Shown here: piece after piece, positions 1,197-13,956 of the stretch
How the letters are laid out: every line of letters begins with the position of its first letter
Numbering within the stretch: position 1 is the stretch's first letter
Assembly (NCBI GenBank): GCA_005885115.1
Contig: VAXX01000116.1
Coordinates: 1 to 14,218, forward strand
DNA length: 14,218 nt
Source: Actinomycetota bacterium
GTDB taxonomy: Bacteria; Actinomycetota; Actinomycetes; Mycobacteriales; Micromonosporaceae
Reading direction: 5' to 3'
Notes under the pieces: model-generated
The model's database searches: none
Told to the model about the DNA's origin: nothing
What the model saw: the letters and a program-made list of their open reading frames with translations, nothing else
Program-made: the position numbers and the translations under genes

Positions 1197-1304
1197 GTGC
1201 CCGTTAAAGCACCGCTATTCCACCTCACGAGCGGTGGTCCGGTTCGCACCAGCGAATCGCCCCACCGCCCGTCCGAAGCACGGCCCGGCGGGAGGGTCCG
1301 GTGA
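1197..1304 (+). CDS. Possible 35-codon leader ORF translationally coupled to the sigma gene
   Basis: A near-perfect Shine-Dalgarno, AGAGGAGG (1184-1191), lies five bases before GTG 1197. The frame runs 35 codons to TGA 1302-1304, which overlaps the GTG at 1301 that opens the sigma factor (GTGA overlap). The peptide begins MPVKAPLFHLTSGGPV and is Pro/Ser/Arg-rich, with no domain I recognise. Third codon positions are less GC-rich than in neighbouring genes, so it may be a regulatory leader rather than a protein selected for function. Alternatively, it may be the original N-terminus of the sigma protein in a lineage with a frameshift. Confidence 0.4.
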   Translation: MPVKAPLFHLTSGGPVRTSESPHRPSEARPGGRVR

Positions 1305-2169
1305 CGGGGTACGAGTTGAGCGCCGAGCTGTTCGGCGCCCGGGCGGCGCTCACCGAGGGCCTCGCGGCGCTGCGGTGGACGATCGTCGAGCTGGCCCGGC
1401 TCGACCGGGTGACCCGGCGGGCCAACGAGAGCGGTACCACCGGTGGAAGCGGCACGGGGGGCGCCGCGCGGACCCGCAACCGGCCGCCGACCAACGACGC
1501 GTCCGGCCGTCACCTGCCGGCGGCGAACGCCCGGCCGGTCGCCGGGATCGGCCGGCCCATCCCGGCGCAGGAGCACACCGCCACCGCCACGATCCTCACC
1601 GAGCCGACCCAGGCACTGCCCACGGTCCAGACCGGTACCCCCGGCCCGACGCCGCCCCCGGATCGGCCCGATCCCGGGGACGCCGCGGCCGAGGTCTGGG
1701 CGCTGGTCGAGCGGGCCCAGGCCGGCGAGTCCGAGGCGTTCGGGCTGATCTACGACCGGTACGTGGACACCGTCTTCCGGTTCATCTACTTCCGGGTCGG
1801 CAACCGGCAGCTCGCCGAGGACCTCACCTCAGACACCTTCCTGCGGGCGCTCAAGCGGATCGGCAGCTTCACCTGGCAGGGCCGGGACCTGGGCGCCTGG
1901 CTGGTGACGATCGCCCGCAACCTGGTCGCGGACCACTTCAAGTCCGGCCGGTACCGGCTGGAGGTCACTACCGGTGATGTCCTCGACGCCGACCGCGAGG
2001 ATCGGGGGCCGGAAGGCAGCCCCGAGGCCGCCGTCGTCGACCACATCACGAACGTGGCCCTGCTCGGCGCGGTCAAGCAATGGGCAAGAACGAAGGGGCC
2101 ATCAAGGCCCTGCAGTACCGGGCCGTCCGCGCGCTCGCCCGGTTACTGCCCGAAGGCTTCCAACCGTGA
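1301..2169 (+). pseudogene. bldN: BldN-type ECF sigma factor, disrupted by a deletion in region 4
   Basis: This ECF sigma factor would recruit RNA polymerase to sheath-protein and developmental genes. Translation from GTG 1301 (Shine-Dalgarno GGAGGG at 1291-1296) gives a long, low-complexity N-terminal extension of about 130 residues, as in the Streptomyces BldN pro-protein. Region 2 follows at residues 135-216, with LVERAQAGESEAFGLIYDRY, LAEDLTSDTFLRALKRIGSFTWQGRD and AWLVTIARNLVADHFKS. After VKQ (2078-2080) the frame breaks. The expected tail, MGKNEGAIKALQYRAVRALA..LLPEGFQP, resumes in another frame from 2080 to TGA 2167-2169. The block of about 26 residues normally between them (region 4.1 and the start of the 4.2 helix-turn-helix) is missing, and the loss is not a multiple of three. 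Both flanks are otherwise undecayed, so the event is either very recent or an assembly artefact. Confidence 0.85.
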
Positions 2170-2221
2170 CGTCCGGTGGCGTGACCGTCGTCACTCATGG
2201 TGACAGAATCCCGCGCGAGGC

Positions 2222-2250
2222 CGTAACCGGCCGGGTGAACGCCGCGTTGA
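2222..2250 (+). promoter_or_regulatory. Sigma-BldN-like promoter of the DUF5667 gene
   Basis: CGTAAC (2222-2227) and CGTTGA (2245-2250) are separated by 17 nt. As I recall it, the Streptomyces sigma-BldN promoter has these same -35 and -10 hexamers. Transcription would start near 2257, about 50 nt before the GTG at 2309. In Streptomyces, rsbN is transcribed from its own sigma-BldN promoter, which gives a negative feedback loop; the arrangement here fits that. Confidence 0.6.
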
Positions 2251-2270
2251 TACCGATGCCACCGGTATCA
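2248..2270. repeat. Inverted repeat TGATACCG-N7-CGGTATCA
   Basis: Perfect 8-bp arms lie at 2248-2255 and 2263-2270 with a 7-nt spacer. The left arm overlaps the last bases of the CGTTGA -10 hexamer and the repeat spans the predicted start site. That suits an operator, or a hairpin at the 5' end of the transcript. The binding protein is unknown. Confidence 0.5.
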
Positions 2271-2308
2271 GCCGTGGTATGCGAGCTCACCGAAGGGGGG
2301 TGCGAGCG

Positions 2309-3310
2309 GTGAATACCTCGGTCTTCCACCGGCGCCGGGCGGAGCGCCTCGCCCAGCTACTCGACGAGTCGTCGGGTGGCCCGGCGCACCATTCCCGGTC
2401 CGCGCACGACCCGGAGCTGGCCGGGTACGTCCGGCTCAGCGACACCCTGACCGCGGCCGCCGGGGTACTCCCCGGCCCGGGTCGGGAGTTCCGGACCGGC
2501 CTGCGGGCCATGCTGGTCGCCACGGCCGAGCGCGACGGCATCGGTACCACCGCCGTTCCCGAGCGCGACCCGGAGTACGGCAGCCGGCGCGCCCGGGTGG
2601 CCCCGCCGCTCGTGGCCCGGGGCCGGGCCAAGGGCGCCATCCTGGTCGGGCTGGCCGCCGGTACGCTCGCCCTGTCCGGAATGTCTGCGGCCAGCGGCAA
2701 CGCGATGCCCGGCGACCCGCTCTACAGCGTCAAGCGCTCCACCGAGAGCGCCCGCCTCGCGCTGGCCGGCTCGGACGTCGGGCGGGGGCAGCTCTACCTG
2801 GAGTTCGCGCGCAACCGGCTGGCCGAGGCCCAGTCGATAGGCCCGCACGGCGCCGACCTGTCCGGGATGCTCGACGACATGGACGCCGACACCCGCAACG
2901 GCGTACGCCTGCTGACCTCCGCCGCCATGGACAAGCACGACCGCACCGGGCTCGACGTGATCGACGCGTTCGTACCGCAACAGCGGGCCGACCTCACCGC
3001 GCTCGGCAACTCCGCCCGGATCCGGCAGTCCCAGGCGCTGCTCGACCAGATCGCCCGCCGCTCGGCGGACCTGCGTCCGGGCCTGGGCTGTGCCTCCGGC
3101 GCGGCGGCCCCGGACGAGCTGGGCGCCACGCCGCAGCAGTGCACCGGGACGGGGACGGTACGCCCCTCGGGGTCACTCCCGCACCCCGAGGCGACGACGA
3201 CCGGCGCGACCGGCACCACCAACCCGGGTACGACCCGATCACCCAGCCCGACGGCCAGCCCGTCCGGCCTCCTGGGTGACCTCGGGCGGATCCTGGGTGG
3301 CGGGCACTGA
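2309..3310 (+). CDS. rsbN: DUF5667 membrane protein, RsbN-like anti-sigma factor
   Basis: It is likely the membrane anti-sigma factor holding the BldN-type sigma factor until signalled. GTG 2309 is chosen over ATG 2279 because GAAGGGGGG (2292-2300) is a plausible Shine-Dalgarno for it and the product then starts MNTSVFHRRRAERLAQLLDE. Residues 1-105 are a charged cytoplasmic region carrying the presumed sigma-binding part. About 108-128 is one hydrophobic segment (AILVGLAAGTLALSGMSA). The DUF5667 signature MPGDPLYSVKRSTESARLAL follows at 133-152. The last 70 residues are Ser/Thr/Pro/Gly-rich, as in an extracytoplasmic tail. Position next to bldN and the upstream BldN-like promoter support the assignment; sequence identity to Streptomyces RsbN was not tested. 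Confidence 0.75.
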   Translation: MNTSVFHRRRAERLAQLLDESSGGPAHHSRSAHDPELAGYVRLSDTLTAAAGVLPGPGREFRTGLRAMLVATAERDGIGTTAVPERDPEYGSRRARVAPPLVARGRAKGAILVGLAAGTLALSGMSAASGNAMPGDPLYSVKRSTESARLALAGSDVGRGQLYLEFARNRLAEAQSIGPHGADLSGMLDDMDADTRNGVRLLTSAAMDKHDRTGLDVIDAFVPQQRADLTALGNSARIRQSQALLDQIARRSADLRPGLGCASGAAAPDELGATPQQCTGTGTVRPSGSLPHPEATTTGATGTTNPGTTRSPSPTASPSGLLGDLGRILGGGH

Positions 3311-3327
3311 CCCGAACGCACAATTGA

Positions 3328-3357
3328 GGGGACTCCGGCAGCGCTGCCGGAGTCCCT
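3328..3357 (+). terminator. Perfect-palindrome hairpin after the DUF5667 gene
   Basis: GGGACTCCGGCAGC (3329-3342) is followed directly by its exact complement GCTGCCGGAGTCCC (3343-3356), 14-bp arms with no spacer. G3328 can add a G-U pair with T3357. It lies 18 nt after the DUF5667 stop and 50 nt before the HAD start. There is no run of T after it, as is usual for high-GC actinobacterial terminators. Confidence 0.75.
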
Positions 3358-3406
3358 ATCTGTGCGACGGCGGTTACCCTCGCAAGGGCAAGGAAGGGAG
3401 GTCGGC

Positions 3407-4182
3407 GTGGCCGGATCATCCGAGCACGAGGTTCTCGCCGGCTGGGCGGCCGCGGAACTGGAGGCGGCGCTCACCGTACCGGTCGAGCCCGGGGTAGCGG
3501 CCTTCTTCGACGTGGACAACACGATGATGCAGGGTGCCTCGATCTACTGGTTCGCCCGGGGTCTGGCCGCCCGCAAGTACTTCAGCACGGCCGACCTCGC
3601 CCGGTTCGCCTGGAGCCAGCTCAAGTTCCGGGTGCTGGCCAAGGAGCGGCACGGCGACATCTCCGACGCCAAGGCGGCCGCGCTGGCCTTCATCAAGGGC
3701 TGGAAGGTCGACGACATGGCCCGGCTCGCCGAGGAGATCTTCGACGAGCTGATGGCCGAACGGATCTGGTCGGGCACCCGGGCCCTGGCCCAGTTGCACC
3801 TCGACGCCGGCCAGCGGGTCTGGCTGGTGACGTCGAGCAGGGCGCGTACACCGGCCGGCTGGTCGGCGACCTGCTGCACGGGCCGGCCAAGGCCGACGCG
3901 ATCCGGGCCCTGGCCGCCGAGGAACACCTGGACCTGGCGCGCTGCACGGCCTACAGCGACTCCACCAACGACCTGCCGATGCTGTCCCTGGTGGGGCACG
4001 CGGTGGCGGTCAACCCGGACGCCGCGCTGCTGCGCGAGGCCCGCCGGCGCAACTGGGAGGTGCGCGACTTCCGCACCGGACGCAAGGCGGCGAAGGTGGC
4101 GGTACCGGCCGCGCTGGGCGCCGGCGTGGTCATCGGGGCGGTCCTCGCGACCGCCGCGATCCGCCGGCGCGGCCGCGACTAG
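3407..4182 (+). pseudogene. HAD-IB family hydrolase (SerB1-like), frameshifted by a deletion
   Basis: It belongs to the phosphoserine-phosphatase-like HAD-IB family (TIGR01490 type, like Rv0505c SerB1). GTG 3407 is chosen because AAGGAAGGGAGG lies just upstream. Motif I is FFDVDNTMMQ, with catalytic Asp35 and Asp37. Motif II is in VWLVTSS. After T/S at about 3832-3838 the frame breaks. The second frame reads VEQGAYTGRLVGDLLHGPAK and then motif IV, AYSDSTNDLPML, and ends at TAG 4180-4182. The usual 25 or so residues between (an APVELA..IA.RLG.TGALGT-like stretch in relatives) are missing, with a non-triplet loss. The C-terminus has a hydrophobic helix (VAVPAALGAGVVIGAVLATA) that could anchor it in the membrane. 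Substrate unknown; phospholipid or serine phosphate are both possible. The stop overlaps that of the convergent acyltransferase gene. Confidence 0.83.
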
Positions 4183-5048
4183 AACTCGGCCTCCGTCTCC
4201 TCCGCGCGCAGCGCGAGGAGCTGGTGGAGGCTCTGCTGGATCGTTTCGCGTACCTGGTCGGCGAGGTTGAACACGACCAGCGGGTCGTCGGCCTGGTCCG
4301 CGCCGAGGTCGGCCGGGATCGGGCTGCCGAACTGGATGTACCACTTGGACGGCAGCGGGATCAGCCCGAGCGGACCCAGCCACGGGAAGGTCGGCGTCAC
4401 CGGGAAGTACGGGGTGCCCAGCAGCCGGGCCACCGACTTGAGGTTGCCCAGCATCGGGTACGTCTCCTCGGCGCCGACGATCGACACCGGGATGATCGGA
4501 GCGCCGGTACGCAGTGCCGCCGAGACGAACCCGCCGCGCCCGAACCGCTGGAGCTTGTACCGGTCCCGGTAGAGCTTGCCGATCCCCTTGAACCCCTCCG
4601 GGAACACGCCGACCAGTTCACCCTTGCGCAGCAGCCGCTCGGCGTCCGGGTTGCAGGCCAGCGTGCTGCCGTGCTTGCGGGCCAGCTCCGAGACGACCGG
4701 CATCCGGAACACCAGGTCGGCCCCGAGCAGGCGCAGGTGTCGCTGCTCCGGGTGCTCGTCGTGGACGGCCAGCGCGAGCATCAGCGCGTCGAGCGCGAGG
4801 GTGCCGGAGTGGTTGGCCACCACCAGGGCGGCACCCTTGGCCGGTAGCTGCTCGATCCCGCGTACGTCCACCCGGAACCAGTCCCGGTAGAGCGGGCGCA
4901 GCAGCGGGTGCAGTACGGCGTCGGTCAGCTCGGGATCGAAGCCGAACTCGTCGACCTCGTACTCCCCGGTCAGGCGGCGGCGCAGGAAGGCCAGCGCGCC
5001 GGCGACCCGGCGGTCCCAGACGTCCGGTACGGGCTCGTACTCGGTCAT
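4179..5048 (-). CDS. PlsC-like lysophospholipid/glycerol acyltransferase (LPLAT, MGAT-like)
   Basis: This 289-residue protein likely transfers an acyl chain to a glycerol or lysophospholipid acceptor at the membrane. The acyltransferase histidine motif is ANHSGTLALD (His80, Asp87). Spacing is H-X6-D rather than the classic H-X4-D, which fits the MGAT-like branch. The glycerol-phosphate-binding motif follows as FPEGFKGIGK (149-158), then the IIPVSIVGAEETYPML block. It is the Rv0502 counterpart. ATG 5048 lies 6 nt after the SDR stop, with a Shine-Dalgarno (AGGTGAGG) inside the end of that gene, so it belongs to the bS22-SDR operon. Its stop shares the palindrome CTAG (4179-4182) with the convergent HAD gene. 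The acceptor lipid is not known. Confidence 0.85.
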   Translation of the reverse strand: MTEYEPVPDVWDRRVAGALAFLRRRLTGEYEVDEFGFDPELTDAVLHPLLRPLYRDWFRVDVRGIEQLPAKGAALVVANHSGTLALDALMLALAVHDEHPEQRHLRLLGADLVFRMPVVSELARKHGSTLACNPDAERLLRKGELVGVFPEGFKGIGKLYRDRYKLQRFGRGGFVSAALRTGAPIIPVSIVGAEETYPMLGNLKSVARLLGTPYFPVTPTFPWLGPLGLIPLPSKWYIQFGSPIPADLGADQADDPLVVFNLADQVRETIQQSLHQLLALRAEETEAEF

Positions 5049-5054
5049 CGTCCC

Positions 5055-6128
5055 TCACCTGCCCAAGGCGGCCCGGCCCTGCCGGATGCCCGCGAGGATG
5101 GTCTGCTCCAGCGCCTTGATGGCCTCGCCCGGCAGTACGCTGCCGGTGCCCCGGAGGAAGTCGGCGAACGCGACCGCGGTCGGTCGCGGCGTGTACCCGA
5201 ACTCGTCGATCAGCGCGGTCGTGTCCACCACCCGACCGTGTACGAACAGGTCCAGCTGGTCCAGGCTCACCGTGGTGCCCAGGCCCCCGCCGGAGCGGCT
5301 GAGCGCGGACATGCCCCGCTCGGGTACCGGTAGGGCGATCCGGCCGGCCCGGCGTACCGCCTGGGACAGCGTGATCACCCCGGCCCCGGCCACGTTGAAG
5401 GTGCCCGGATGCGCTTCGAGGACCGAGCGGTGCAGGACCTCGAGCGCGTCGTCGACGTGGACGAACTGCAACCGCGGGTCCCGGCCGAGCACGGTCGGGA
5501 CGATCGGCGAGCTGAAGTAGCGGGTGAGCGTCGTGTTGGCGTGCCGGCCGATCAGCGGCGCGAACCGCAGTACCGTCGCGGCCACCTCCGGCCGGCGCCG
5601 GCGGAACCCGCGCACGTACCCCTCGATGTCCAGCACGTCGCGCGCGAAGCCGCCGCGCGGGATCTCCCGTGGCTCGGTGTCCTCGGTGAACACGGCCGGG
5701 TCGCGGAACGACGCCCCGTACGCGGCGGTCGAGGACCGTACCACGATCTTCCGCAGGTCCGGCGCGCGCTGGCAGGCGGCCAGGAGCTGCATCGTGCCGA
5801 TGACGTTCTGCTCCTTCATTGCCGCCCGGCCACCGGGCTGGGTACCGGCGCCGGAGGCGATGTCCAGGTGGACGACCGCCTCGACCCGGCGCCCGGTGAT
5901 GACCCGGGCCGGCTCGCTGGTGCAGATGTCAGCGCGCTCGAACTCGACGGTGTCGCCCAGGACAGCGGCCTGCTGACCGGTCGGCTCCCGGTCGTCCAGG
6001 CCGATCACCCGTTCGATCCGGGGATCGGCGGCCAGCCGCGCGGCGACCTGCGCGCCCAGGTACCGGGAGACACCGGTGACCAGCACCACCCGTGGCGGGG
6101 TGGCGGCGGACACCGGTGCGGAGGTCAC
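5055..6128 (-). CDS. Atypical extended SDR, NAD-dependent epimerase/dehydratase family
   Basis: A 357-residue Rossmann-fold protein, counterpart of Rv0501 (annotated galE2). The nucleotide-binding loop is [15 protein letters not shown] (residues 15-29), a variant of TGxxGxxG with Ser-Arg-Tyr in the middle. Acidic residues after strand 2 (VIGLDDREP, 41-49) suggest NAD rather than NADP. The catalytic Ser/Thr strand is present ([10 protein letters not shown], 129-138), but the usual YxxxK is not evident: that region reads [17 protein letters not shown]. The name galE2 is therefore doubtful and the substrate is unknown. GTG 6128 overlaps the TGA of the bS22 gene (GTGA), which implies translational coupling to a ribosomal protein gene. 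Confidence 0.85.
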
Positions 6129-6226
6129 TTGCCGAGACGGCGACGCTGGACCCTGGTCTTGCGCAGCAGCTTGCGGTGCTTCTTCTTCGCCATGCGCTTG
6201 CGGCGCTTCTTGACCACGGAGCCCAT
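6125..6226 (-). CDS. Small ribosomal protein bS22 (AURKAIP1/COX24 domain), 33 aa
   Basis: ATG 6226 to TGA 6125 encodes a 33-residue, strongly basic protein starting [19 protein letters not shown] and ending RVQRRRLGK. It is nearly identical, as I recall, to the mycobacterial 30S protein bS22 (Rv0500B), which sits at the decoding centre of the small subunit. The Shine-Dalgarno GAGGGGA lies 8-9 nt upstream. Its stop overlaps the SDR start by GTGA. It is too short for most ORF callers. The very high Lys/Arg content is normal for the family. Confidence 0.93.
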
Positions 6227-6272
6227 ATGGCCAGTCCCCTCGAACCTGCGTTGCCTGCGTGATTAGGGGTCC

Positions 6273-6278
6273 AGCCTA
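6273..6278 (-). promoter_or_regulatory. Candidate -10 element for the bS22 operon
   Basis: On the minus strand TAGGCT lies about 47 nt before the bS22 start, within the 88-nt gap after the bldC-like stop. It fits the TANNNT form seen elsewhere in the window. No convincing -35 is seen, so this is a weak call. Confidence 0.3.
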
Positions 6279-6314
6279 GCGGCCCGCAGCGGTGTCGCGG
6301 AAATCGGGCCGCGG

Positions 6315-6527
6315 TTACGCGGATTCCTGAAAAGCTTCCCGCAGGTACGTGTGCACCGCGTGCTCCGGTACCCGGAACGACCGGCCGACCCGGACGGCGG
6401 TCAGCTCGCCCGAGTGCACCAACCGGTACACGGTCATCTTGGACACCCGCATGAGTTCCGCCACTTCGGCGACGGTCAGGAACCTGACCTCAGCCAGCCT
6501 GCCGTCCGAGTGCGGTGATCCGGTCAT
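6315..6527 (-). CDS. bldC: BldC-type MerR-like helix-turn-helix regulator
   Basis: A 70-residue DNA-binding protein made almost entirely of one excisionase/MerR-type winged helix domain: FLTVAEVAELMRVSKMTVYR (residues 16-35), then LVHSGELTAVRVGRSFRVP and a short C-terminal helix. It has the size and sequence pattern of Streptomyces BldC, which binds DNA head-to-tail and controls entry into development, and of mycobacterial Rv0500A. ATG 6527 has GGGGTGA just upstream. It lies upstream of bS22 and may share its transcript. Upstream, GTACCGGTAC (6583-6592) and ATCGCGCGAT (6601-6610) are short palindromes that could be regulatory. True orthology to BldC, as against other members of the family, needs a tree. 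Confidence 0.82.
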   Translation of the reverse strand: MTGSPHSDGRLAEVRFLTVAEVAELMRVSKMTVYRLVHSGELTAVRVGRSFRVPEHAVHTYLREAFQESA

Positions 6528-6582
6528 GGCTCACCCCGGTCCCTCGCGGCGCGCTCGGCCACGCGCCTGTGTAACTAGGACG

Positions 6583-6610
6583 GTACCGGTACGTGAGTGA
6601 ATCGCGCGAT
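6583..6610. repeat. Two 10-bp palindromes upstream of the bldC-like gene
   Basis: GTACCGGTAC (6583-6592) and ATCGCGCGAT (6601-6610) are both perfect palindromes with an 8-nt gap, about 56-83 nt before the start codon. TTCACT and TAGTTA on the minus strand (18-nt spacing) flank the first one and could be a promoter. Function is inferred only from position. Confidence 0.35.
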
Positions 6611-6641
6611 CCTTCCCGAGAATCAATCACGACACACCCGG

Positions 6642-7562
6642 CTACTTCCTTGACACGAGCGCCCTGAGGAAGAACGAAAGGTTCGCCGGGCGCTCGGCGA
6701 GGCGGCGCATGAGGTATGCGTACCACTGTGTCCCGTACGGCACGTAGACGCGCACGGTGTACCCCGCCGCGGCCAGCCGGAGCTGCTCCTCCGGCCGGAC
6801 CCCGTACAGGAGCTGGAACTCGAAGTCGCCCGGCACCCGGTCGAACCACCGGGCCCGGTCCTCCGCGATCGCGATCAGCCGGGGATCGTGGGTGGCCACC
6901 ATCGGGTACCCGGGGCCGGAAATCAGGATCGACAGGCACCGCACGTACGACCGGTCCACCTCGAGCGTGGACTGGAAGGCGACCGACTCGGGCTCGGCGT
7001 ACGCCCCCTTGCACAGCCGTACCCGCGACCCCGGCGTGGCCAGCTCGCGGCAGTCCCCCTCGGTCCGGCGCAGGTACGCCTGGAGCACCGCGCCGGTGGC
7101 CGGGAAGTCCGCGCGCAACCGGGCCAACGTGTCCAGCGTCTCGTCGGTGGTCTCGTGGTCCTCCATGTCGAGGGTGACCGTGGTGCCGGCGGCGGCCGCG
7201 GCGGCGCAGACCGCGTGCGCGTGCTCGTACGCCAGCTCCTCGTCGAACCGCTGCCCGAGCGCGGACAGCTTCAGGCTCACCTCGGCGACCCCGGTCAGCC
7301 CGGCGTCGGCGAGGGCCTTGAGCAGCCGCAGGTACTCGTCCTTGGTGGCGGCCGCCTGGTCCGGCGTGAGGGTGTCCTCGCCGAGGTGGTCCAGGGTCAC
7401 CGCGAGGCCCGCGGCGGCGAGCTCGCGGGTCACGCGCAGCGCGTCGTCGGTACCGGTGCCGGCGACGAACCGGCGCACCACGTCCCGGGTCACCGGGACC
7501 GTCTCGACCAGCCGCTCCACCCGGGTTGACCGGGACGCGGCGAGAATGGCGCTTCTCAGCAT
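6642..7562 (-). CDS. Proline dehydrogenase (monofunctional PRODH)
   Basis: A 306-residue FAD-dependent TIM-barrel enzyme that oxidises proline to 1-pyrroline-5-carboxylate, the first step of proline breakdown. Motifs in order: VTLDHLGE (55-62), SLKLSALG (96-103), TLDMEDHETTD (130-140), QAYLRRTEGD (161-170), RLCKGAYAE (182-190), ATHDPRLI (223-230), FEFQLLYGVR (247-256) and the substrate-arginine segment LMRRLAERPANLSFFLR (284-300). Length is normal for the single-domain form. No P5C dehydrogenase gene is in view. ATG 7562 is supported by TACCCT at exactly -12 to -7, so the mRNA is probably leaderless. In mycobacteria the matching place upstream of Rv0500A is held by proC, which makes proline, so the pathway direction is opposite here. 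Confidence 0.93.
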   Translation of the reverse strand: MLRSAILAASRSTRVERLVETVPVTRDVVRRFVAGTGTDDALRVTRELAAAGLAVTLDHLGEDTLTPDQAAATKDEYLRLLKALADAGLTGVAEVSLKLSALGQRFDEELAYEHAHAVCAAAAAAGTTVTLDMEDHETTDETLDTLARLRADFPATGAVLQAYLRRTEGDCRELATPGSRVRLCKGAYAEPESVAFQSTLEVDRSYVRCLSILISGPGYPMVATHDPRLIAIAEDRARWFDRVPGDFEFQLLYGVRPEEQLRLAAAGYTVRVYVPYGTQWYAYLMRRLAERPANLSFFLRALVSRK

Positions 7563-7568
7563 GAGCTG

Positions 7569-7574
7569 AGGGTA
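7569..7574 (-). promoter_or_regulatory. -10 element of a leaderless proline dehydrogenase transcript
   Basis: The minus strand reads TACCCT at -12 to -7 relative to the ATG at 7562, which places transcription start on the A of the start codon. The same hexamer at the same spacing stands before the gene at 10129. No clear -35 is visible. Confidence 0.6.
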
Positions 7575-7623
7575 TCTCCGGCGGCCCGCGCGGACCCGGC
7601 AACCACGACGGGCACCCGGTGGG

Positions 7624-7629
7624 TACGCT
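7624..7629 (+). promoter_or_regulatory. Candidate -10 element of the GSP-like gene
   Basis: TACGCT would start transcription near 7636, about 40 nt before ATG 7676, leaving room for the Shine-Dalgarno GGAAGG (7661-7666). It lies about 50 bp from the divergent proline dehydrogenase -10. No -35 is evident. Confidence 0.4.
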
Positions 7630-7675
7630 CGCGGACGGGCGGACCGCGGAACCCCTTCACGGAAGGTTGGCGTCG

Positions 7676-8773
7676 ATGCACCGGATCAGCAGCGCCCCTC
7701 GGGCCGGCTGGCGGGACATCGTGCGCGCGCAGGCGGCCGAGTTCGCCGGCGCCGACGTACCGGAGGCGTTGCAGCGCTGGGACGAGAGCGCCTGCTACGT
7801 GCTGAGCCTGCGCGAGGTGCTCCGGCTGGAGGCGATCACCGAGGAACTGCACGGGATGTGCCTGGCGGCCGCCCGGTACGTGGTGATGAACAGCCGGTAC
7901 CCGGAGTTCGGCATCCCGGACTGGGCCGCCCCGGGGCTGCGCCGCTCGCTCGCCTCGTACGCGCCCAGCCTGTACAGCTGCCTGGACCTCTGGTACGACG
8001 GCACCTCCCCGCCCAAGCTGCTGGGCTTCCACGCCGACAACCCGCCCGGCCTGGTCGAGACGGCGATCGTCCAGTGGTACTGGCTGGACCAGGTCAGCCC
8101 GGAACAGGACCAGTGGAACCAGCTCCACGAGCGGCTGGTCGCCGGCTGGCAGGCGATCGCGCCGCGGCTGGGCGACAAGACCGTCCACTGTGGATGGTCC
8201 GACCTCGACACGGTCGGCACGGACCGGATGACCATCGGGTACATCGCCGAGACTGCCCGCCAGGCCGGGCTCAGCCCGCAACTGCTGCCGATGCGCGCGA
8301 TCGGCTGGGACGGTGCCCGGTTCCTCGACGAGCGGGCGGAACAGATCACCACCTGCTTCAAGCTGTACCCGTGGTCGTGGATGATCCGCGAGCCCTACGG
8401 CCGGCACGCGCTCGCCGAGACCAACCCGATCAACTGGCTGGAGCCGGCCTGGAAGCTGTTGCTGGCCAGCCCGGCGCTGGCCGCGCTGCTCTGGGAGCTG
8501 TACCCGGGCCATCCCAACCTGCTGCCGGCCTACCTGGACGGCCCGCGCGACCTGCCGGACTTCGACGCCATCCCGCTGCCCGACTCATCCGGGTACTGCT
8601 ACCGGCTGGCCAGCCCGTTGCCGGCGTTCGACGGTCAGCACGTGGCGCTGTCCAGTTGGGTGGTGACCGACGTGGAGAACAAGGGCCGGGCCGCAGGGGT
8701 CGGCTTCCGTGAATCCATCGGACCTACTATGGCGGGGTACGCCCGGTTCGTACCGCACGTGGTGACCCGATGA
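7676..8773 (+). CDS. Glutathionylspermidine synthase-like ATP-grasp protein, probably degenerate
   Basis: The 365-residue product matches the synthetase domain of glutathionylspermidine synthase (PF03738 type): LEAITEELHGMCLAAARYVV (51-70), PPKLLGFHADNPPGLVE (112-128), FKLYPWSWM (228-236), EPAWKLLLASPALAALLWEL (256-275), YPGHPNLLPAYLD (276-288) and RESIGPTMAGYARFVPH (345-361). ATG 7676 is chosen over GTG 7619 because GGAAGG lies 9 nt upstream. Two things are odd. The metal-binding motif, normally EYNADTPT, reads GFHADNPP, so the Glu and Asn ligands are lost, and the family RxD reads CLD. The KPLLGREG nucleotide-binding segment expected after residue 292 is absent: PRDLPDFDAIPLPDSSGYCY runs straight across. 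It is therefore likely inactive as an ATP-grasp ligase, or altered by an in-frame deletion. Neighbours are divergent PRODH and a downstream CGNR regulator. Confidence 0.78.
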   Translation: MHRISSAPRAGWRDIVRAQAAEFAGADVPEALQRWDESACYVLSLREVLRLEAITEELHGMCLAAARYVVMNSRYPEFGIPDWAAPGLRRSLASYAPSLYSCLDLWYDGTSPPKLLGFHADNPPGLVETAIVQWYWLDQVSPEQDQWNQLHERLVAGWQAIAPRLGDKTVHCGWSDLDTVGTDRMTIGYIAETARQAGLSPQLLPMRAIGWDGARFLDERAEQITTCFKLYPWSWMIREPYGRHALAETNPINWLEPAWKLLLASPALAALLWELYPGHPNLLPAYLDGPRDLPDFDAIPLPDSSGYCYRLASPLPAFDGQHVALSSWVVTDVENKGRAAGVGFRESIGPTMAGYARFVPHVVTR

Positions 8774-8798
8774 TGTCGCTTCACGTGGGGTTTGCGTC

Positions 8799-8804
8799 TA
8801 CCGT
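8799..8804 (+). promoter_or_regulatory. -10 element of a leaderless CGNR-regulator transcript
   Basis: TACCGT occupies -12 to -7 from GTG 8811. There is no Shine-Dalgarno before that start, so leaderless translation is the simplest reading. The gene thus has its own promoter although it lies only 37 nt after the GSP-like gene. Confidence 0.55.
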
Positions 8805-8810
8805 TGTCGA

Positions 8811-9338
8811 GTGAACTTCGACGCGTACGCGCACCGCGCCGTTGATCTGGTCAACGCGCCACTGGCCGGCCTCGACGATCTGAAGATCCTGTTCCGGGAC
8901 GAAAGCTGGATGTGCGAGGAGGCCACCGACCGGGACGTCGCCACGTTCCGCCGGGCGCAGAAGAAGCTGCGTGAAGTCTTCGAGCTGGGTGCGGGCGGCC
9001 GCGACCTGGACGCGGTACAGGCGCTCAACCTGCTCCTGGAGACGCACCCGATGCAGCCGCGCATCTCCGGCCACGACGCCGCCGACTGGCACATGCACGT
9101 CACCAGCCGGGGTGCCACCATCTCCGCCGAGTACCTGGCCGGGGCGGTCTGGGGATTGGCCGTGTGGCTGTGCGAGTACGGCAGCGCCCGGTTCGGGGTG
9201 TGCGCCGACGAGCGCTGCGGCAACGTCTACCTCGACACGTCGTCGAACTGCTGCCGGCGGTTCTGCTCCGAGCGGTGCGCGACCCGGTCCCATGTCGCGG
9301 CCCATCGCGCCCGGAAGCGGGCATTGGCGCCAGTCTAA
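8811..9338 (+). CDS. CGNR zinc-finger / ABATE-domain protein, putative transcription regulator
   Basis: A 175-residue protein with an N-terminal ABATE (stress-induced-regulator-like) domain, about residues 1-125, and a C-terminal CGNR zinc finger. The finger reads [18 protein letters not shown], then [20 protein letters not shown], with Cys pairs CxxxxC and CxxxC as zinc ligands. The family is thought to bind DNA, but most members are uncharacterised. Start GTG 8811 fits the leaderless -10 and gives the usual family length. TAA 9336-9338 overlaps the TAG of the convergent TIM-barrel gene by the bases CTAA. Being next to the GSP-like gene it may regulate it, which is inference. Confidence 0.87.
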
Positions 9339-10129
9339 GCGTCCACTGTGGACGGTGCGAGGTGGGTACGGGCGAAGGCGAGCGCCTCGGCCAGATCCGC
9401 CTCCCGGTCCGAGCGGCTGGCCGCCCGGCGCGTCGATACCTCGACCGCGATCGATCCGGTGAACCCGCGTCCGGCGAGCGAGGCGAGCAGCTTCGCGCAC
9501 GGCTGGTTGCCCCGTCCAGGTACGAGGTGCTCGTCGCGACCCTCCCCGGTGCCGTCCCCCAGGTGTACGTGGGCCAGCCGCGGACCCATCGCGTCGGCCA
9601 TCGCCAGCGCGTCGCTGCGCGATGCCGAACAGTGCGACAGGTCCAGCGTGTACGCGTCGAAGCCGACCTTGGTCGGGTCCCAGCCCGGCGCGTACGGGAT
9701 GAACTCCCGCCCGGCCATGCGTACCGGGAACATGTTCTCCACCGCGAACCGGATCCGCGGATGCTGCTCCGCGAGCCGGGCCATCCCCGCCACGAACGTA
9801 CGCGCATAGTCGCGCTGCCACGTGAACGGCGGATGTACCACCACCACCTGCGCGCCCAGCGCGTCGGCCAACCCGGCCGCGCGGCGCAACCGCTCCCACG
9901 GGTCCGGGCTCCACACCCGCTGGGTGACCAGCAGACAGGGCGCGTGTACCGACCGGATCGGCACCCCGTAGTGCTCGGACAGCCCGCGCAGCGCGCCGGC
10001 GTCCTGGCTGACCGCGTCGGTCCAGACCATCACCTCGACCCCGTCGTAGCGCAGGGCCGCCGCGGTCGCGAACGCCGCCGAGGTCGGCTCGGGGAAGACC
10101 GACGACGTCGACAGCAGCACAGGTGTCAC
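9335..10129 (-). CDS. Sugar phosphate isomerase/epimerase family (xylose-isomerase-like TIM barrel)
   Basis: A 264-residue AP-endonuclease-2-type TIM barrel, counterpart of Rv0498. Metal-binding positions expected for the family are visible: [33 protein letters not shown] (Glu), [11 protein letters not shown] (Asp/His), HVHLGDGTG (His/Asp) and [10 protein letters not shown] (Glu). The start is set at GTG 10129 rather than the upstream ATG 10162 because TACCCT stands at exactly -12 to -7 of the GTG, and because the product then begins directly at strand 1 ([11 protein letters not shown]). The substrate is unknown. It lies 36 nt after the Ppx/GppA gene but with its own predicted promoter. Confidence 0.83.
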
Positions 10130-10135
10130 AGCGTC

Positions 10136-10141
10136 AGGGTA
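10136..10141 (-). promoter_or_regulatory. -10 element of a leaderless TIM-barrel gene transcript
   Basis: The minus strand reads TACCCT at -12 to -7 from GTG 10129, identical in sequence and spacing to the element before proline dehydrogenase. It lies between the Ppx/GppA stop (10166) and this start. Confidence 0.6.
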
Positions 10142-10165
10142 GCCCCGCCCCGCGCGCGGCACCCT

Positions 10166-11092
10166 TCAGCTCTCCAGGATGTCCAACCGACGGAGGATGA
10201 CGCCCTCCCGCAGGGCCCACGGGCAGAACTCGACGGCGTCGATACCCAGGCGGCGCATCGTCGCCTCGGCCACGATCGCCCCGGCCAGCAGTTGGTGTGC
10301 CCGGCTGGCGCTGACCCCGTCCATCTCGGCGAGCTTGCTGGACGGGATGTGCTGGATGAAGCCGCGTACCTGGTGCAGCCCGGTCAGCGTGAGCATCCGG
10401 TGGACCAGCGGGCCTTCCGCCGACGGTGCGGCACCGGAGAGCCGGGCCAGGGTACGGAAGGTCTTCGAGGTGGCCACCGGACGGTCCCAGCCGGCCGCCG
10501 TCAACGTCTTCGCCGGCTTGTCGAGCAGCTTGTCCACGTAGTCGATCAGGGCGTCGATGTCGCTGGAGCGCGGCGGGTCGCCGTGCAGGCGCTCGCGGGT
10601 CAGCCGGCCGGCCCCCAGCGGTACGGACAGCGCGGTGTCCGGCTCCTCGTCGATCCCGCTGGCCAACTCCAGCGAGCCGCCGCCGATGTCGAGCACCAGC
10701 AGGCGCCCGGCCGACCACCCGAACCAGCGGCGTACCGCGAGGAAGGTCATCCGCGCCTCGCCCTCGCCGGACAGCACCCGCAGCTCGACGCCGGCCTCCT
10801 CGCGGACCCGGGCGAGCACCTCGGCCGCGTTCGTCGCGTCACGTACCGCCGAGGTGGCGAAGGCGAGCAGGTCGTCGGTCTGCAACCGCTCCGCGGAGCG
10901 GCGCGCCGCCTTGACCGCGGCCACCAGCGCGTCGGCCCCCTCGCGGGACAGCCGCCCGTCCGGCGTGAGCTGCTCGGCCAGCCGCAACACGGCCTTCTCG
11001 GAGTGGGCCGGCCACGGGTGCGCGCCGAGGTACGCGTCCACCACGAGCAGGTGCACCGTGTTGGACCCCACGTCAAGGACACCGAGTCGCAT
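10166..11092 (-). CDS. Ppx/GppA family phosphatase (exopolyphosphatase-type)
   Basis: A 308-residue member of the sugar-kinase/Hsp70 fold, counterpart of Rv0496. It would remove phosphate from polyphosphate or from pppGpp. The two phosphate-binding loops are present: [19 protein letters not shown] (residues 2-20) and [16 protein letters not shown] in the middle. [12 protein letters not shown] and [11 protein letters not shown] are further family motifs. It is the short form without the C-terminal HD-like domain of E. coli Ppx. ATG 11092 lies just after a -10-like TAGCGT, so its leader is one base or none. It is next to the phosphate two-component genes, so a role in polyphosphate balance is reasonable but inferred. 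Confidence 0.9.
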
Positions 11093-11098
11093 GGGGCT

Positions 11099-11105
11099 TA
11101 CGCTA
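11099..11105. promoter_or_regulatory. Bidirectional promoter: overlapping divergent -10 elements
   Basis: On the plus strand TACGCT (11099-11104) is at -12 to -7 from ATG 11111. On the minus strand TAGCGT (11105 down to 11100) is at -13 to -8 from ATG 11092. The two starts are only 18 bp apart, so both -10 hexamers use the same bases. Both transcripts would be leaderless or nearly so. Confidence 0.6.
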
Positions 11106-11110
11106 ACCCG

Positions 11111-11974
11111 ATGGGTACCCCCGTCGCCGTCCAGCTGACCGATCCGCGTGATCTGGAGGTCGGCCTCGACTTCCCCCGGGAGTGGGTGGAGTTCGCCGAT
11201 CCGGCTGACCCGGCGCACCTGGTCCGCGCCGACCTCACCTGGCTGCTGTCCCGCTGGACGTGCGTGTTCGGCAAGTCCTGCCACGGCATCATCCGGGGCC
11301 GGGCGGCGGACGGCTGCTGCTCGCACGGCGCGTTCTTCACCGACGCCGACGACGAGAAGCGGGTACGCGCGGCGGCGAAGAAGCTGACCCCGCAGACCTG
11401 GCAGCACTTCCGGCGCGGGTTCAAGAACTACACCGAGGTCGACACCGTGGACGGTACGACCCCGGCGCGGCGTACCGCGACGCGCGAGGGCGGCCCGTGC
11501 GTGTTCCTCAACGACGCCGACTTCCCGGGTGGCTGGGGCTGCGCGCTGCACGCCCAGGCGCTGCGCGACGGGGTACACCCGTTGGAGTACAAGCCGGACG
11601 TGTGCTGGCAACTGCCGATCCGCCGGGATCAGGAGTGGGCCAAGCGGCCGGACGGCTCGAAGGTACTGGTGTCCACGATCACCGAGTTCGACCGGCGCGG
11701 TTGGGGCGAGGGCGGCCACGACCTGGACTGGTGGTGCACGTCCTCACCGGAGGCGCATGTCGGGGCCGAGCCGCTGTTCGTCTCGTACGGTCCGGAGCTC
11801 ACCGCGCTGATCGGCCGGGCCGCGTACGACAAGCTGCACGAGCTGTGTACCGCCCGGCTGGCCCAGGGTCTGGTGGCCCGGCACCCGGCGACCCCGGCAC
11901 AGCCACCGGCGACGGCCACTCCGGGCGGCCTCGAACCGGCCTCTACCCGCGCCCCGCGCAGCCGCCGCTCCTGA
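11111..11974 (+). CDS. Conserved Cys-rich protein of unknown function (Rv0495c-like)
   Basis: A 287-residue protein whose place beside Ppx and RegX3 matches Rv0495c of M. tuberculosis. It has an ordered set of Cys and His residues: C51-X5-C57-H58, C69-C70-S-H72, C130 (GGPCVFLN), C144-X2-H147 ([11 protein letters not shown]) and C165 ([10 protein letters not shown]). That pattern suggests a bound metal or iron-sulfur site. W/F-rich stretches ([20 protein letters not shown]) are also conserved-looking. There is no signal peptide or membrane helix. The C-terminal 30 residues are Pro/Thr/Ala-rich and probably disordered. ATG 11111 fits a leaderless -10. The stop is 7 bp from the convergent regX3 stop. 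I do not know its function. Confidence 0.8.
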
Positions 11975-11981
11975 GCGCGGC

Positions 11982-12600
11982 CTACGGCTCGAACTTGTAG
12001 CCCAGGCCGCGGACGGTGACGATGTAGCGCGGCGTGGACGGCTCCGGCTCGATCTTGGAACGCAACCGCTTCACGTGTACGTCGAGGGTCTTGGTGTCCC
12101 CGACGTAGTCCGCGCCCCACACCCGGTCGATGAGCTGTCCCCGGGTCAACACCCGACCCGAGTTGCGCAGCAGCATCTCCAGCAGCTCGAACTCCTTGAG
12201 CGGCAACGGTACGGCGGCTCCGGAGACGGTCACCACGTGCCGTTCGACGTCCATCCGTACCGGGCCGGCGGACAGGGTCGGCGGGGTCAGCTCGGCGGCC
12301 TCGCCGGCGTTGCGGCGCAGGACGGCCCGGATCCGCGCGACCAGTTCCCGCGGCGAGTACGGCTTGGTCACGTAGTCGTCGGCGCCGATCTCCAGCCCGA
12401 CGACCTTGTCGATCTCGGAGTCCCGTGCGGTGAGGAAGCATCAGGTCCAGCAGGACGATGTCCGCGCCGGTGCGGTCGAACTCGGTGAGCGCGGAGGTAC
12501 CGGTCGCGGCGACCGACACCTCGAAGCCCTCTTTACGCAGCATGTAGGACAAGGCGTCCGAGAACGACTCCTCGTCCTCCACGACCAGCACTCGGGCCAT
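11982..12600 (-). pseudogene. regX3: RegX3/PhoP-type response regulator, disrupted by a deletion in the receiver domain
   Basis: This OmpR-family regulator would control the phosphate-starvation regulon. ATG 12600 overlaps the senX3 stop (TGATG), so translation is coupled. The receiver begins ARVLVVEDEESFSDAL and reaches the phosphorylation site Asp52 in VLLDLMLP. The frame then breaks at about 12432. The second frame resumes at TARDSEIDKVVGLEIGADDY and runs through VTKPYSPRELVARIRAVLRR and a full winged-helix domain (LKEFELLEMLLRNSGRVLTR, DVHVKRLRSKIEPEP, TVRGLGYKFEP) to TAG 11982-11984. About 22 residues (helix 3 and strand 4) are missing and the loss is not a multiple of three. Total span is 619 nt against about 680-690 for an intact family member. 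Confidence 0.87.
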
Positions 12601-13814
12601 CAGGCGCTTCCCTTCGCTTCCGCGGTTTCCGCCGCGATCTCAACGGACGGTGGTAGCGGCAGGACGGCGTCCGGCGGTCGCGCCGGCAGCCGCAAGGTGA
12701 ACGTCGATCCGACGCCGACCGTGCTGACCACCTCGACCTGCCCGCCGTGGTTGGTCGCGATGTGCTTGACGATGGCCAGGCCCAGCCCGGTACCGCCGGT
12801 GGCGCGCGAGCGCGCCTTGTCGGCGCGGTAGAACCGCTCGAAGATCCGGTCGAGGTCCTTGGGTTCGATGCCGATCCCCTGGTCGATCACGGCGATCTCG
12901 ACCACGTCGGCGTCGCCGCGCGCGGTGATGGTGACCCGGGGAGCGGGTTTGCCGTCCTCGGCGTCGGGCGAGTACGCCACCGCGTTCTCCGCGAGGTTGG
13001 CCACCGCGGTCATCAGTTGGCTCTCGCTGCCGTACACGGTCAGCCCGCGCATCCCGACGAAGCCGACCTCGAGCCCCTTGGCCGAGGCCGGGGTACGGGT
13101 CCGATCGATCACCTCGGCGACGATCCGGTCGACCGAGACGGGTGCCGGCTCGGGCAGCGGCTCCCCGCCCTGTAGCCGGGTCAGGTCCAGCAGCTCGCTG
13201 ACCAGCCGGCCGAGCCGGGTGGACTCGTGCCGGATCCGCTCGGCGAACCGGCGGGCCGCCGCGAGGTCCTGGCGGAAGTCGGTCTGGCGCAGTTCCTCGT
13301 CGGTGGAGTCGGCGGCCACGTCGGTGGCGTCGAGCAGCGCCTCGGCCAGCAACTGCAGGGCCCCGACCGGGGTCTTCAGCTCGTGGCTGACGTTGGCGAC
13401 GAAGTCCCGGCGTACCCGGGCGACCCGGTGCGCCTCGGTGACGTCGGCCGCTTCGACCGTCACGTACCCGTCCCCGAGCGCGACCGCGCGGATGTGCACC
13501 CCGAGCGGGTCCCGCCCGCCGCCCCGGGGCAGGTCGAGCTCCACCTCCCGGCGGGTACCGGTGCGGCGGGCCTGCCCGGCCAGGGTACGGACGACGGTGT
13601 GCGCGACGGGTGCCCCCCCGACGGTGGTTCCGGCGCGCAGCAGCCCCATCTCCTTGGCGGCCGGGTTGGCCAGCACCGCCCGGTCCTCCCCGTCCAGGAC
13701 GAGCACCCCGACGCGCAGCGCGTCGAGGCTGCGCCGGCCCAGCCCTTTGGCCCCGACGCGCCTGTCGGGCTCGGCGGCGTCGGCATCGTTACGGCGCCGC
13801 ATCAGGAACTCCAC
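12600..13814 (-). CDS. senX3: SenX3/PhoR-type sensor histidine kinase without membrane segments
   Basis: A 404-residue kinase that would phosphorylate RegX3/PhoP. Residues 30-130 form a PAS-like region (SLDALRVGVLVLDGEDRAVL). The H-box is RDFVANVSHELKTPVGALQ with His144. The N-box is LAENAVAYS with Asn277, G1 is DQGIGIEPKD (311-320), the F-box is IFERFYRADKARSR, and G2 is GGTGLGLAIVKHI (340-352). The start at GTG 13814 is supported by TACCAT at -12 to -7, and an in-frame TAA closes the frame shortly upstream. The N-terminus (MEFLMRRRNDADAAEP) has no hydrophobic helix, whereas M. tuberculosis SenX3 has two. The protein therefore looks cytosolic. Its stop overlaps the regX3 start. Confidence 0.9.
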   Translation of the reverse strand: MEFLMRRRNDADAAEPDRRVGAKGLGRRSLDALRVGVLVLDGEDRAVLANPAAKEMGLLRAGTTVGGAPVAHTVVRTLAGQARRTGTRREVELDLPRGGGRDPLGVHIRAVALGDGYVTVEAADVTEAHRVARVRRDFVANVSHELKTPVGALQLLAEALLDATDVAADSTDEELRQTDFRQDLAAARRFAERIRHESTRLGRLVSELLDLTRLQGGEPLPEPAPVSVDRIVAEVIDRTRTPASAKGLEVGFVGMRGLTVYGSESQLMTAVANLAENAVAYSPDAEDGKPAPRVTITARGDADVVEIAVIDQGIGIEPKDLDRIFERFYRADKARSRATGGTGLGLAIVKHIATNHGGQVEVVSTVGVGSTFTLRLPARPPDAVLPLPPSVEIAAETAEAKGSA

Positions 13815-13820
13815 AGGCAG

Positions 13821-13826
13821 ATGGTA
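13821..13826 (-). promoter_or_regulatory. -10 element of a leaderless senX3 transcript
   Basis: The minus strand reads TACCAT at -12 to -7 from GTG 13814. GTTAACC (13835-13841, plus strand) lies within the presumed promoter and resembles a PHO-box half unit. Confidence 0.55.
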
Positions 13827-13886
13827 GGGCGATTGTTAACCTTCGGATTTCGCCCTGCTGGACAAATCCGGCACGCGACGGAGAAT

Positions 13887-13930
13887 GTTTCATCCATGTT
13901 CACCGGTACGACGCTTGATCAACCTAGCGT
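13887..13930 (+). promoter_or_regulatory. phoU promoter with PHO-box-like 11-nt direct repeats
   Basis: Two adjoining 11-mers, GTTTCATCCAT (13887-13897) and GTTCACCGGTA (13898-13908), resemble the direct-repeat units of actinomycete PHO boxes (GTTCACC-type). TAGCGT (13925-13930) is a likely -10, so the second repeat covers the -35 position, as expected for a PhoP/RegX3-activated promoter. Transcription would start near 13937, about 20 nt before phoU. Confidence 0.5.
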
Positions 13931-13956
13931 CCAGACCAGCCACCCGAGGGAGCGAC

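What the first reader, a model, noticed from the sequence alone, without database searches (positions are those of the whole stretch)
2070..12440. A pattern: three or four losses of 60-80 nt inside coding regions of one window
bldN (2080), the HAD gene (3836) and regX3 (12432) each lack about 22-26 codons, always inside a conserved domain and always a single clean join. The GSP-like gene lacks a block of comparable size in frame. Independent selection for such uniform losses is unlikely. The simplest explanation is systematic assembly loss, for example at strong GC hairpins. A biological cause (a deletion-prone strain or excised short elements) would be remarkable.
Basis: inference. Interest (0 to 1): 0.7.

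Follow-up and report, generated by a model that had tools for sequence, protein, structure and literature searches.

The report
Gene breaks are genome-assembly joins
Three genes in this stretch of an actinobacterial draft genome look broken by 65 to 76 missing letters, but the same loss recurs elsewhere in the draft and also at its marked scaffold gaps, so it is almost certainly an assembly error and not biology.

Summary
Against the same-genus genome G001 and other genera the window lacks 76 nt in a BldN-family sigma gene (2079/2080), 76 nt in a HAD-IB gene (about 3828) and 65 nt in an OmpR-type regulator gene (12433/12434). The fourth, the GSP_synth gene, is no such loss: the window has more there than G001.

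The pattern is not local. In 121 kb of own draft aligned to G001 there are 32 distinct losses of 60-110 nt (27 unmarked, 5 at N runs; 23 inside one G001 gene, 65-107 nt, mean 80) and one gain of that size. In 85 control loci (756 kb aligned) there are 3 frame-changing breaks, none of that size. Lost stretches are not hairpin-rich, GC-rich or bounded by a motif.

The draft carries N runs (scaffold gaps). At 5 of the 6 (of 8 seen) that could be measured, the reference stretch exceeds the own stretch by 67-94 nt, the same shortfall as at unmarked joins; the sixth by 35. NAD+ synthase (twice) and glutamine synthetase genes are hit by unmarked joins.

Verdict: a systematic artefact of contig joining. 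No reads were available, so this is inference. Not a biological feature.

The parts
1301..2169 (+). BldN-family ECF sigma factor gene, broken at 2079/2080: 76 nt absent, which in the G001 protein falls inside sigma region 4 (Sigma70_r4_2, residues 242-293)
   Evidence: alignment to G001; (76 nt in 5 of 5 listed loci); G001 orthologue hits TIGR02952 BldN family above cut-off; window's first piece keeps only Sigma70_r2
2079..2080 (+). unmarked join 1 (76 nt absent, no N, one best split point)
3407..4182 (+). HAD-IB family hydrolase gene, broken at about 3828: 76 nt absent inside the HAD domain
   Evidence: G001 orthologue passes TIGR01490; the window's pieces hit PF12710 profile 1-106 and 134-188
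3826..3831 (+). unmarked join 2 (76 nt absent; exact base uncertain by a few nt)
11982..12600 (-). OmpR-type response regulator gene (RegX3-like by recall), broken at 12433/12434: 65 nt absent inside the receiver domain
   Evidence: G001 orthologue has Response_reg 2-110 and Trans_reg_C
12433..12434 (-). unmarked join 3 (65 nt absent, no N)
7676..8773 (+).
5024..5054 (.). possible further join: 78 nt fewer than G001 at a gene start or intergenic stretch; undecided

Best explanation
The three breaks are joins made when short contigs of a fragmented draft (probably a metagenome-assembled genome) were put together. At each join roughly 65-107 nt of real sequence is left out. Where the software thought a gap remained it wrote N, and there too the own stretch is short by about the same amount. 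Where it thought none remained it abutted the contigs without a mark, which looks like a clean deletion in a gene. Shown: the losses, their size, their spread over the sampled contigs, and the equal shortfall at 5 of 6 measured N runs. Inferred: that the unmarked joins are the same kind of scaffold join, and that the loss is a roughly fixed stretch of contig end discarded or miscounted by the assembler (for example a presumed k-mer overlap that was not there); which program did it is unknown.
For: Genome G000 has 607 contigs, 77.74% complete. 8 N runs (1, 9, 9, 24, 28, 39, 128, 153) in 326,455 bases of 41 unmasked sequences; one N run in 433,807 bases of G001. Reference stretch minus own stretch at the 6 N-marked joins with a G001 counterpart: 67, 94, 91, 35, 78, 67, against 65-107 at the 18 unmarked joins of that size class inside genes. 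Protein-level scan of G001 genes against the own contigs: 19 breaks, 18 of them 65-98 nt (mean 80.1, sd 9.4; three of these at N runs), one -11. DNA scan of 121,311 aligned bases: 32 losses of 60-110 nt, 1 gain of that size. Control: 85 loci, 755,934 nt aligned, 3 frame-changing breaks of net 1, 10 and 1 nt. Unmarked joins hit core metabolic genes: glutamine-dependent NAD+ synthase at two places and type I glutamine synthetase; N-marked ones hit aspartate carbamoyltransferase and NuoL. Only 1 internal stop in 82,099 nt of own sequence aligned at 70% or more, so the genes are otherwise well kept.
Against: No reads or coverage could be examined. One of the 6 measured N-marked joins falls short by only 35 nt, and 2 of the 8 N runs could not be measured. 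If the scaffolder only underestimated gap sizes, unmarked losses below 60 nt should be common; inside genes there are 9 losses of 16-52 nt (one N-marked), about as many as the 8 gains of 6-36 nt, so a fixed cut fits better than a biased estimate, but the exact step is not shown. In-frame sizes are few (2 of 23 inside genes; 1 of 10 in contigs not picked for their breaks), which I put down to picking contigs by frame break and to chance. At one join (L029:1668) relatives disagree on the size: 73 nt against G001, 172 and 49 nt against two other genera, and none against a third. The control counted breaks between alignments only, not gaps inside one alignment.
Confidence: 0.95

Rival explanations
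1. The polymerase or the assembler skips strong GC hairpins, so that the lost stretches are hairpins.
For: The same-genus relative is about 72% GC (base make-up), where secondary structure is plausible.
Against: 15 lost stretches as read in G001: fold energy per nt -0.222 against -0.225 in random coding stretches (P 0.99); GC 0.726 against 0.728.
Confidence: 0.03
2. Real deletions: a decaying or deletion-prone strain has lost parts of many genes by 65-107 nt deletions.
For: The window's three losses are consistent against several relatives and leave frameshifts.
Against: Real decay should give stops and small indels too; 18 of 19 coding breaks are 65-98 nt and 1 internal stop was seen in 82,099 nt. 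Core metabolic genes are hit. The same shortfall appears at N-marked gaps. No long microhomology: 1-7 equally good split points at the 12 unmarked joins looked at.
Confidence: 0.015
3. Short elements of about 80 nt are excised from genes in this organism.
For: Narrow size range.
Against: The window's lost stretches are ordinary conserved coding sequence in the relatives compared; no boundary motif (P 0.10 and 0.69, n 15); no full-length copy of two of the lost stretches elsewhere in the draft (the third was not searched).
Confidence: 0.005

Closest known systems
Scaffold-gap size error / negative-gap joining in short-read assembly
   Same: Scaffolders estimate gap sizes, which can be negative, and must then join overlapping contig ends (passages of PMC3158087 on the Meraculous assembler).
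   Different: Here 65-107 nt is lost at joins with and without N; five paper searches (listings only) showed no paper that describes this signature.
Pseudogene decay in reduced bacterial genomes (recalled)
   Same: Frame-broken genes.
   Different: Decay gives mixed lesions; here nearly all frame-changing breaks are one size class and core genes are hit.

Membership tests
Assembly join artefact | Draft is fragmented and scaffolded (N runs present) | tested here: met
   607 contigs; 8 N runs in 326,455 bases
Assembly join artefact | Recurs across the genome irrespective of gene function | tested here: met
   32 losses of 60-110 nt in 121,311 aligned bases, about 3.5% of the draft; hit genes of many kinds
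Assembly join artefact | Marked scaffold gaps show the same shortfall as unmarked joins | tested here: met
   5 of 6 measured N-marked joins fall short by 67-94 nt, one by 35; 2 of the 8 N runs not measured
Assembly join artefact | Reads clip or coverage drops at the join | not testable with these tools
   no reads held
Pseudogene decay | Mixture of stops, small indels and deletions | tested here: not met
   18 of 19 breaks are 65-98 nt; 1 internal stop in 82,099 nt
Hairpin-mediated loss | Lost stretches more foldable than background | tested here: not met
   z 0.19, n 15, read in the relative
Excised element | Shared boundary motif or copies elsewhere | tested here: not met
   no motif (n 15); no full-length copy for the 2 stretches tested

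The most novel reading that the evidence does not exclude
The organism truly lacks these stretches: many genes carry a real loss of about 80 nt, produced by an unknown process with a narrow size preference.
Probability: 0.015. Interest if true: 0.9.

Novelty: not a real feature. Interest (0 to 1): 0.08.

Why it matters
It warns that this draft (and perhaps others made by the same pipeline) holds, by extrapolation from one loss per 3.8 kb in a partly picked sample, some hundreds of joins, mostly unmarked, each of which can look like a pseudogene, a frameshift or a lost domain. Findings of broken genes from it should be checked against this signature (65-107 nt, no N) before any biology is read into them.

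Tried and rejected
Hairpin, GC, microhomology and boundary-motif explanations were tested and dropped. A first frame model trained on the longest ORFs was misled by antisense ORFs and was replaced by one filtered for GC by codon position and retrained; it was trained on G001 stretches that also serve as a control. A first pairwise alignment timed out. Six own contigs (L021, L023, L029, L039, L047, L048) were searched against relatives because of their length or predicted frame breaks, and the window was given; the count by frame is biased for these, and the 10 coding events in the other contigs are given apart. Sizes by protein and by DNA alignment differ by up to 15 nt at some joins (85 and 100 near L247:7880; 98 and 107 near L249:3240; 85 and 73 near L029:1670), because flanks are diverged. 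Three losses seen elsewhere are missing from the DNA list: L029:2221 (67 nt by protein), L242:6684 (68 nt) and L047:14818 (75 nt). For 4 of 19 protein-level breaks no DNA pair was found for the junction analysis, and two of the 15 used (both in L249) have poorly matching flanks. Duplicate rows (overlapping L048 references) were merged. Five paper searches (two of them returned nothing) showed no description of this signature; of PMC3158087 I saw passages only, of the others the listing.

Full report
The window is the whole of contig C189 (14,218 bases) of a draft genome of 3,469,911 bases in 607 contigs, 77.74% complete. The one same-genus genome among the 30 relatives listed, G001, is 6.7 Mb; its contig C64 is colinear with the window. 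Other relatives named are mostly Micromonospora, Actinoplanes, Paractinoplanes and Dactylosporangium, so the window comes from the Micromonosporaceae or very near (inference).

The observation. Aligned with G001, the window lacks 76 nt after 2079, 76 nt after about 3828 and 65 nt after 12433, each as one join without N. Other genera agree: 76 nt in 5 of 5 listed loci for the first join and 76-78 in 5 of 5 for the second (G001 included), and 65 in 9 of 9 relatives' loci for the third. The genes are a BldN-family sigma factor, a HAD-IB family hydrolase and an OmpR-type response regulator beside a sensor kinase (the name RegX3 is recalled and rests on no equivalog hit). A codon-usage frame model trained on G001 finds these three same-strand frame switches in the window and no other. 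The GSP_synth gene is not a fourth case: against G001 the window has 19 residues more, and only against 9 homologues about 50% identical does it lack 19-22 residues, near the place where G001 lacks still more.

Is it local? No. With one rule for a frame switch (no stop in the first frame within 60 nt after it, no start in the second within 60 nt before it; applied by hand to the table, own cases listed) the own sequences (33, 219,488 bases, of which 10,156 are masked) hold 19, three of them in the window. G001 holds 8 in 433,807 bases, and six 20-kb loci of other genera none in 120,000. Some of the 19 lie at N runs, and one (L034:4765) is a 115-nt perfect tandem duplication, not a loss.

Sizes. 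Genes predicted in 578 kb of G001 were compared at protein level with 41 own sequences (326,455 bases). There were 19 breaks: -11, then 65, 67, 67, 68, 76, 76, 76, 78, 80, 83, 83, 83, 85, 85, 89, 89, 94 and 98 nt; three of these (67, 94, 78) are at N runs. At DNA level, over 121,311 aligned bases, 74 distinct length differences were found. Inside one G001 gene there were 34 losses (9 under 60 nt, 23 of 60-110, 2 larger) and 8 gains, none of 60-110; elsewhere 20 losses (9 of 60-110) and 12 gains (1 of 60-110). The 23 have mean 80.0, sd 11.6, range 65-107, and 5 of them are at N runs. Control: the G001 genes around the window against 85 loci of other genomes (79 named, 6 unnamed), 755,934 nt aligned, gave 3 frame-changing breaks of net 1, 10 and 1 nt and no in-frame break; gaps inside one alignment were not counted there.

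The key evidence. The own draft holds N runs of 1, 9, 9, 24, 28, 39, 128 and 153, that is, declared scaffold gaps. For six of the eight a G001 counterpart was aligned. The reference stretch is longer than the own stretch, N included, by 67 (N=1), 94 (N=9), 91 (N=24), 35 (N=39), 78 (N=128) and 67 (N=153). Five of six fall in the range of the unmarked joins. The draft therefore loses about 80 nt at joins whether or not it marks them, and the window's three breaks are most simply the unmarked kind.

What it is not. In 15 events with a DNA junction the stretch lost, as read in G001, does not fold better (P 0.99) and is not richer in GC (P 0.73) than random coding stretches. Its ends show no shared motif (P 0.10 and 0.69). 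Two of the window's three lost stretches were searched in the draft and have no full-length match; the longest of the matches listed covers 46 nt. Unmarked joins hit core metabolic genes: NAD+ synthase twice and type I glutamine synthetase; N-marked ones hit aspartate carbamoyltransferase and NuoL. Only one internal stop was seen in 82,099 nt of well-aligned own sequence. A living cell with real lesions at this rate in such genes, and hardly any other kind of lesion, is hard to credit.

Mechanism. Best supported: joining of contigs by read pairs with a loss of contig-end sequence of rather constant size. A pure underestimate of gap size would also leave many unmarked losses below 60 nt; those seen there are about as frequent as small gains, so a fixed cut, such as removal of a presumed k-mer overlap, is the better guess. 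The program is unknown. That scaffolders meet negative gaps and must join overlapping ends is described in passages of PMC3158087. Five paper searches showed nothing on this exact signature.

Limits. No reads were available. The reference is a different species (11,250 of 13,922 aligned columns identical over the window), so sizes may be off by some nt; at L029:1668 three other genera give other sizes than G001. About a tenth of the draft was fetched and about 3.5% compared with G001, and part of that was picked for its frame breaks.

Noticed in passing
L034:4638-4867 (own contig C13): A perfect 115-nt head-to-tail duplication inside an ORF; looks like two contig ends whose overlap was not merged, or a real duplication; it lies in a stretch without counterpart in the G001 stretch compared.
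   Followed up: partly
L029 about 3122 (own contig C8): One in-frame stop in a glutamine synthetase gene, the only internal stop in 82,099 nt of aligned own sequence; could be an error or a real change.
   Followed up: no
window 6123-6227, - strand: A 105-nt stretch 93-96% identical in four other genera, far above its surroundings; a very small basic ORF, by recall the bS22/AURKAIP1-type ribosomal protein.
   Followed up: no
L063:300-1450 (G001 C64 about 260300-261450): Direct repeats spaced 276 nt in the relative; a 276-nt spacing also occurs at L259:10783.
   Followed up: no
L034:2151-5220: A 3-kb stretch absent from the colinear place in G001, carrying an ORF with a secretion-like start.
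   Followed up: no
window 4166-4205, 10153-10166, 11958-11982, 13760-13955: Intergenic stretches shorter than in G001 by about 130 to 620 nt; normal turnover or further joins cannot be told apart here.
   Followed up: no
L242:11252-11410: 59-nt tandem repeat unit in an own contig, in a stretch that G001 lacks at that place.
   Followed up: no
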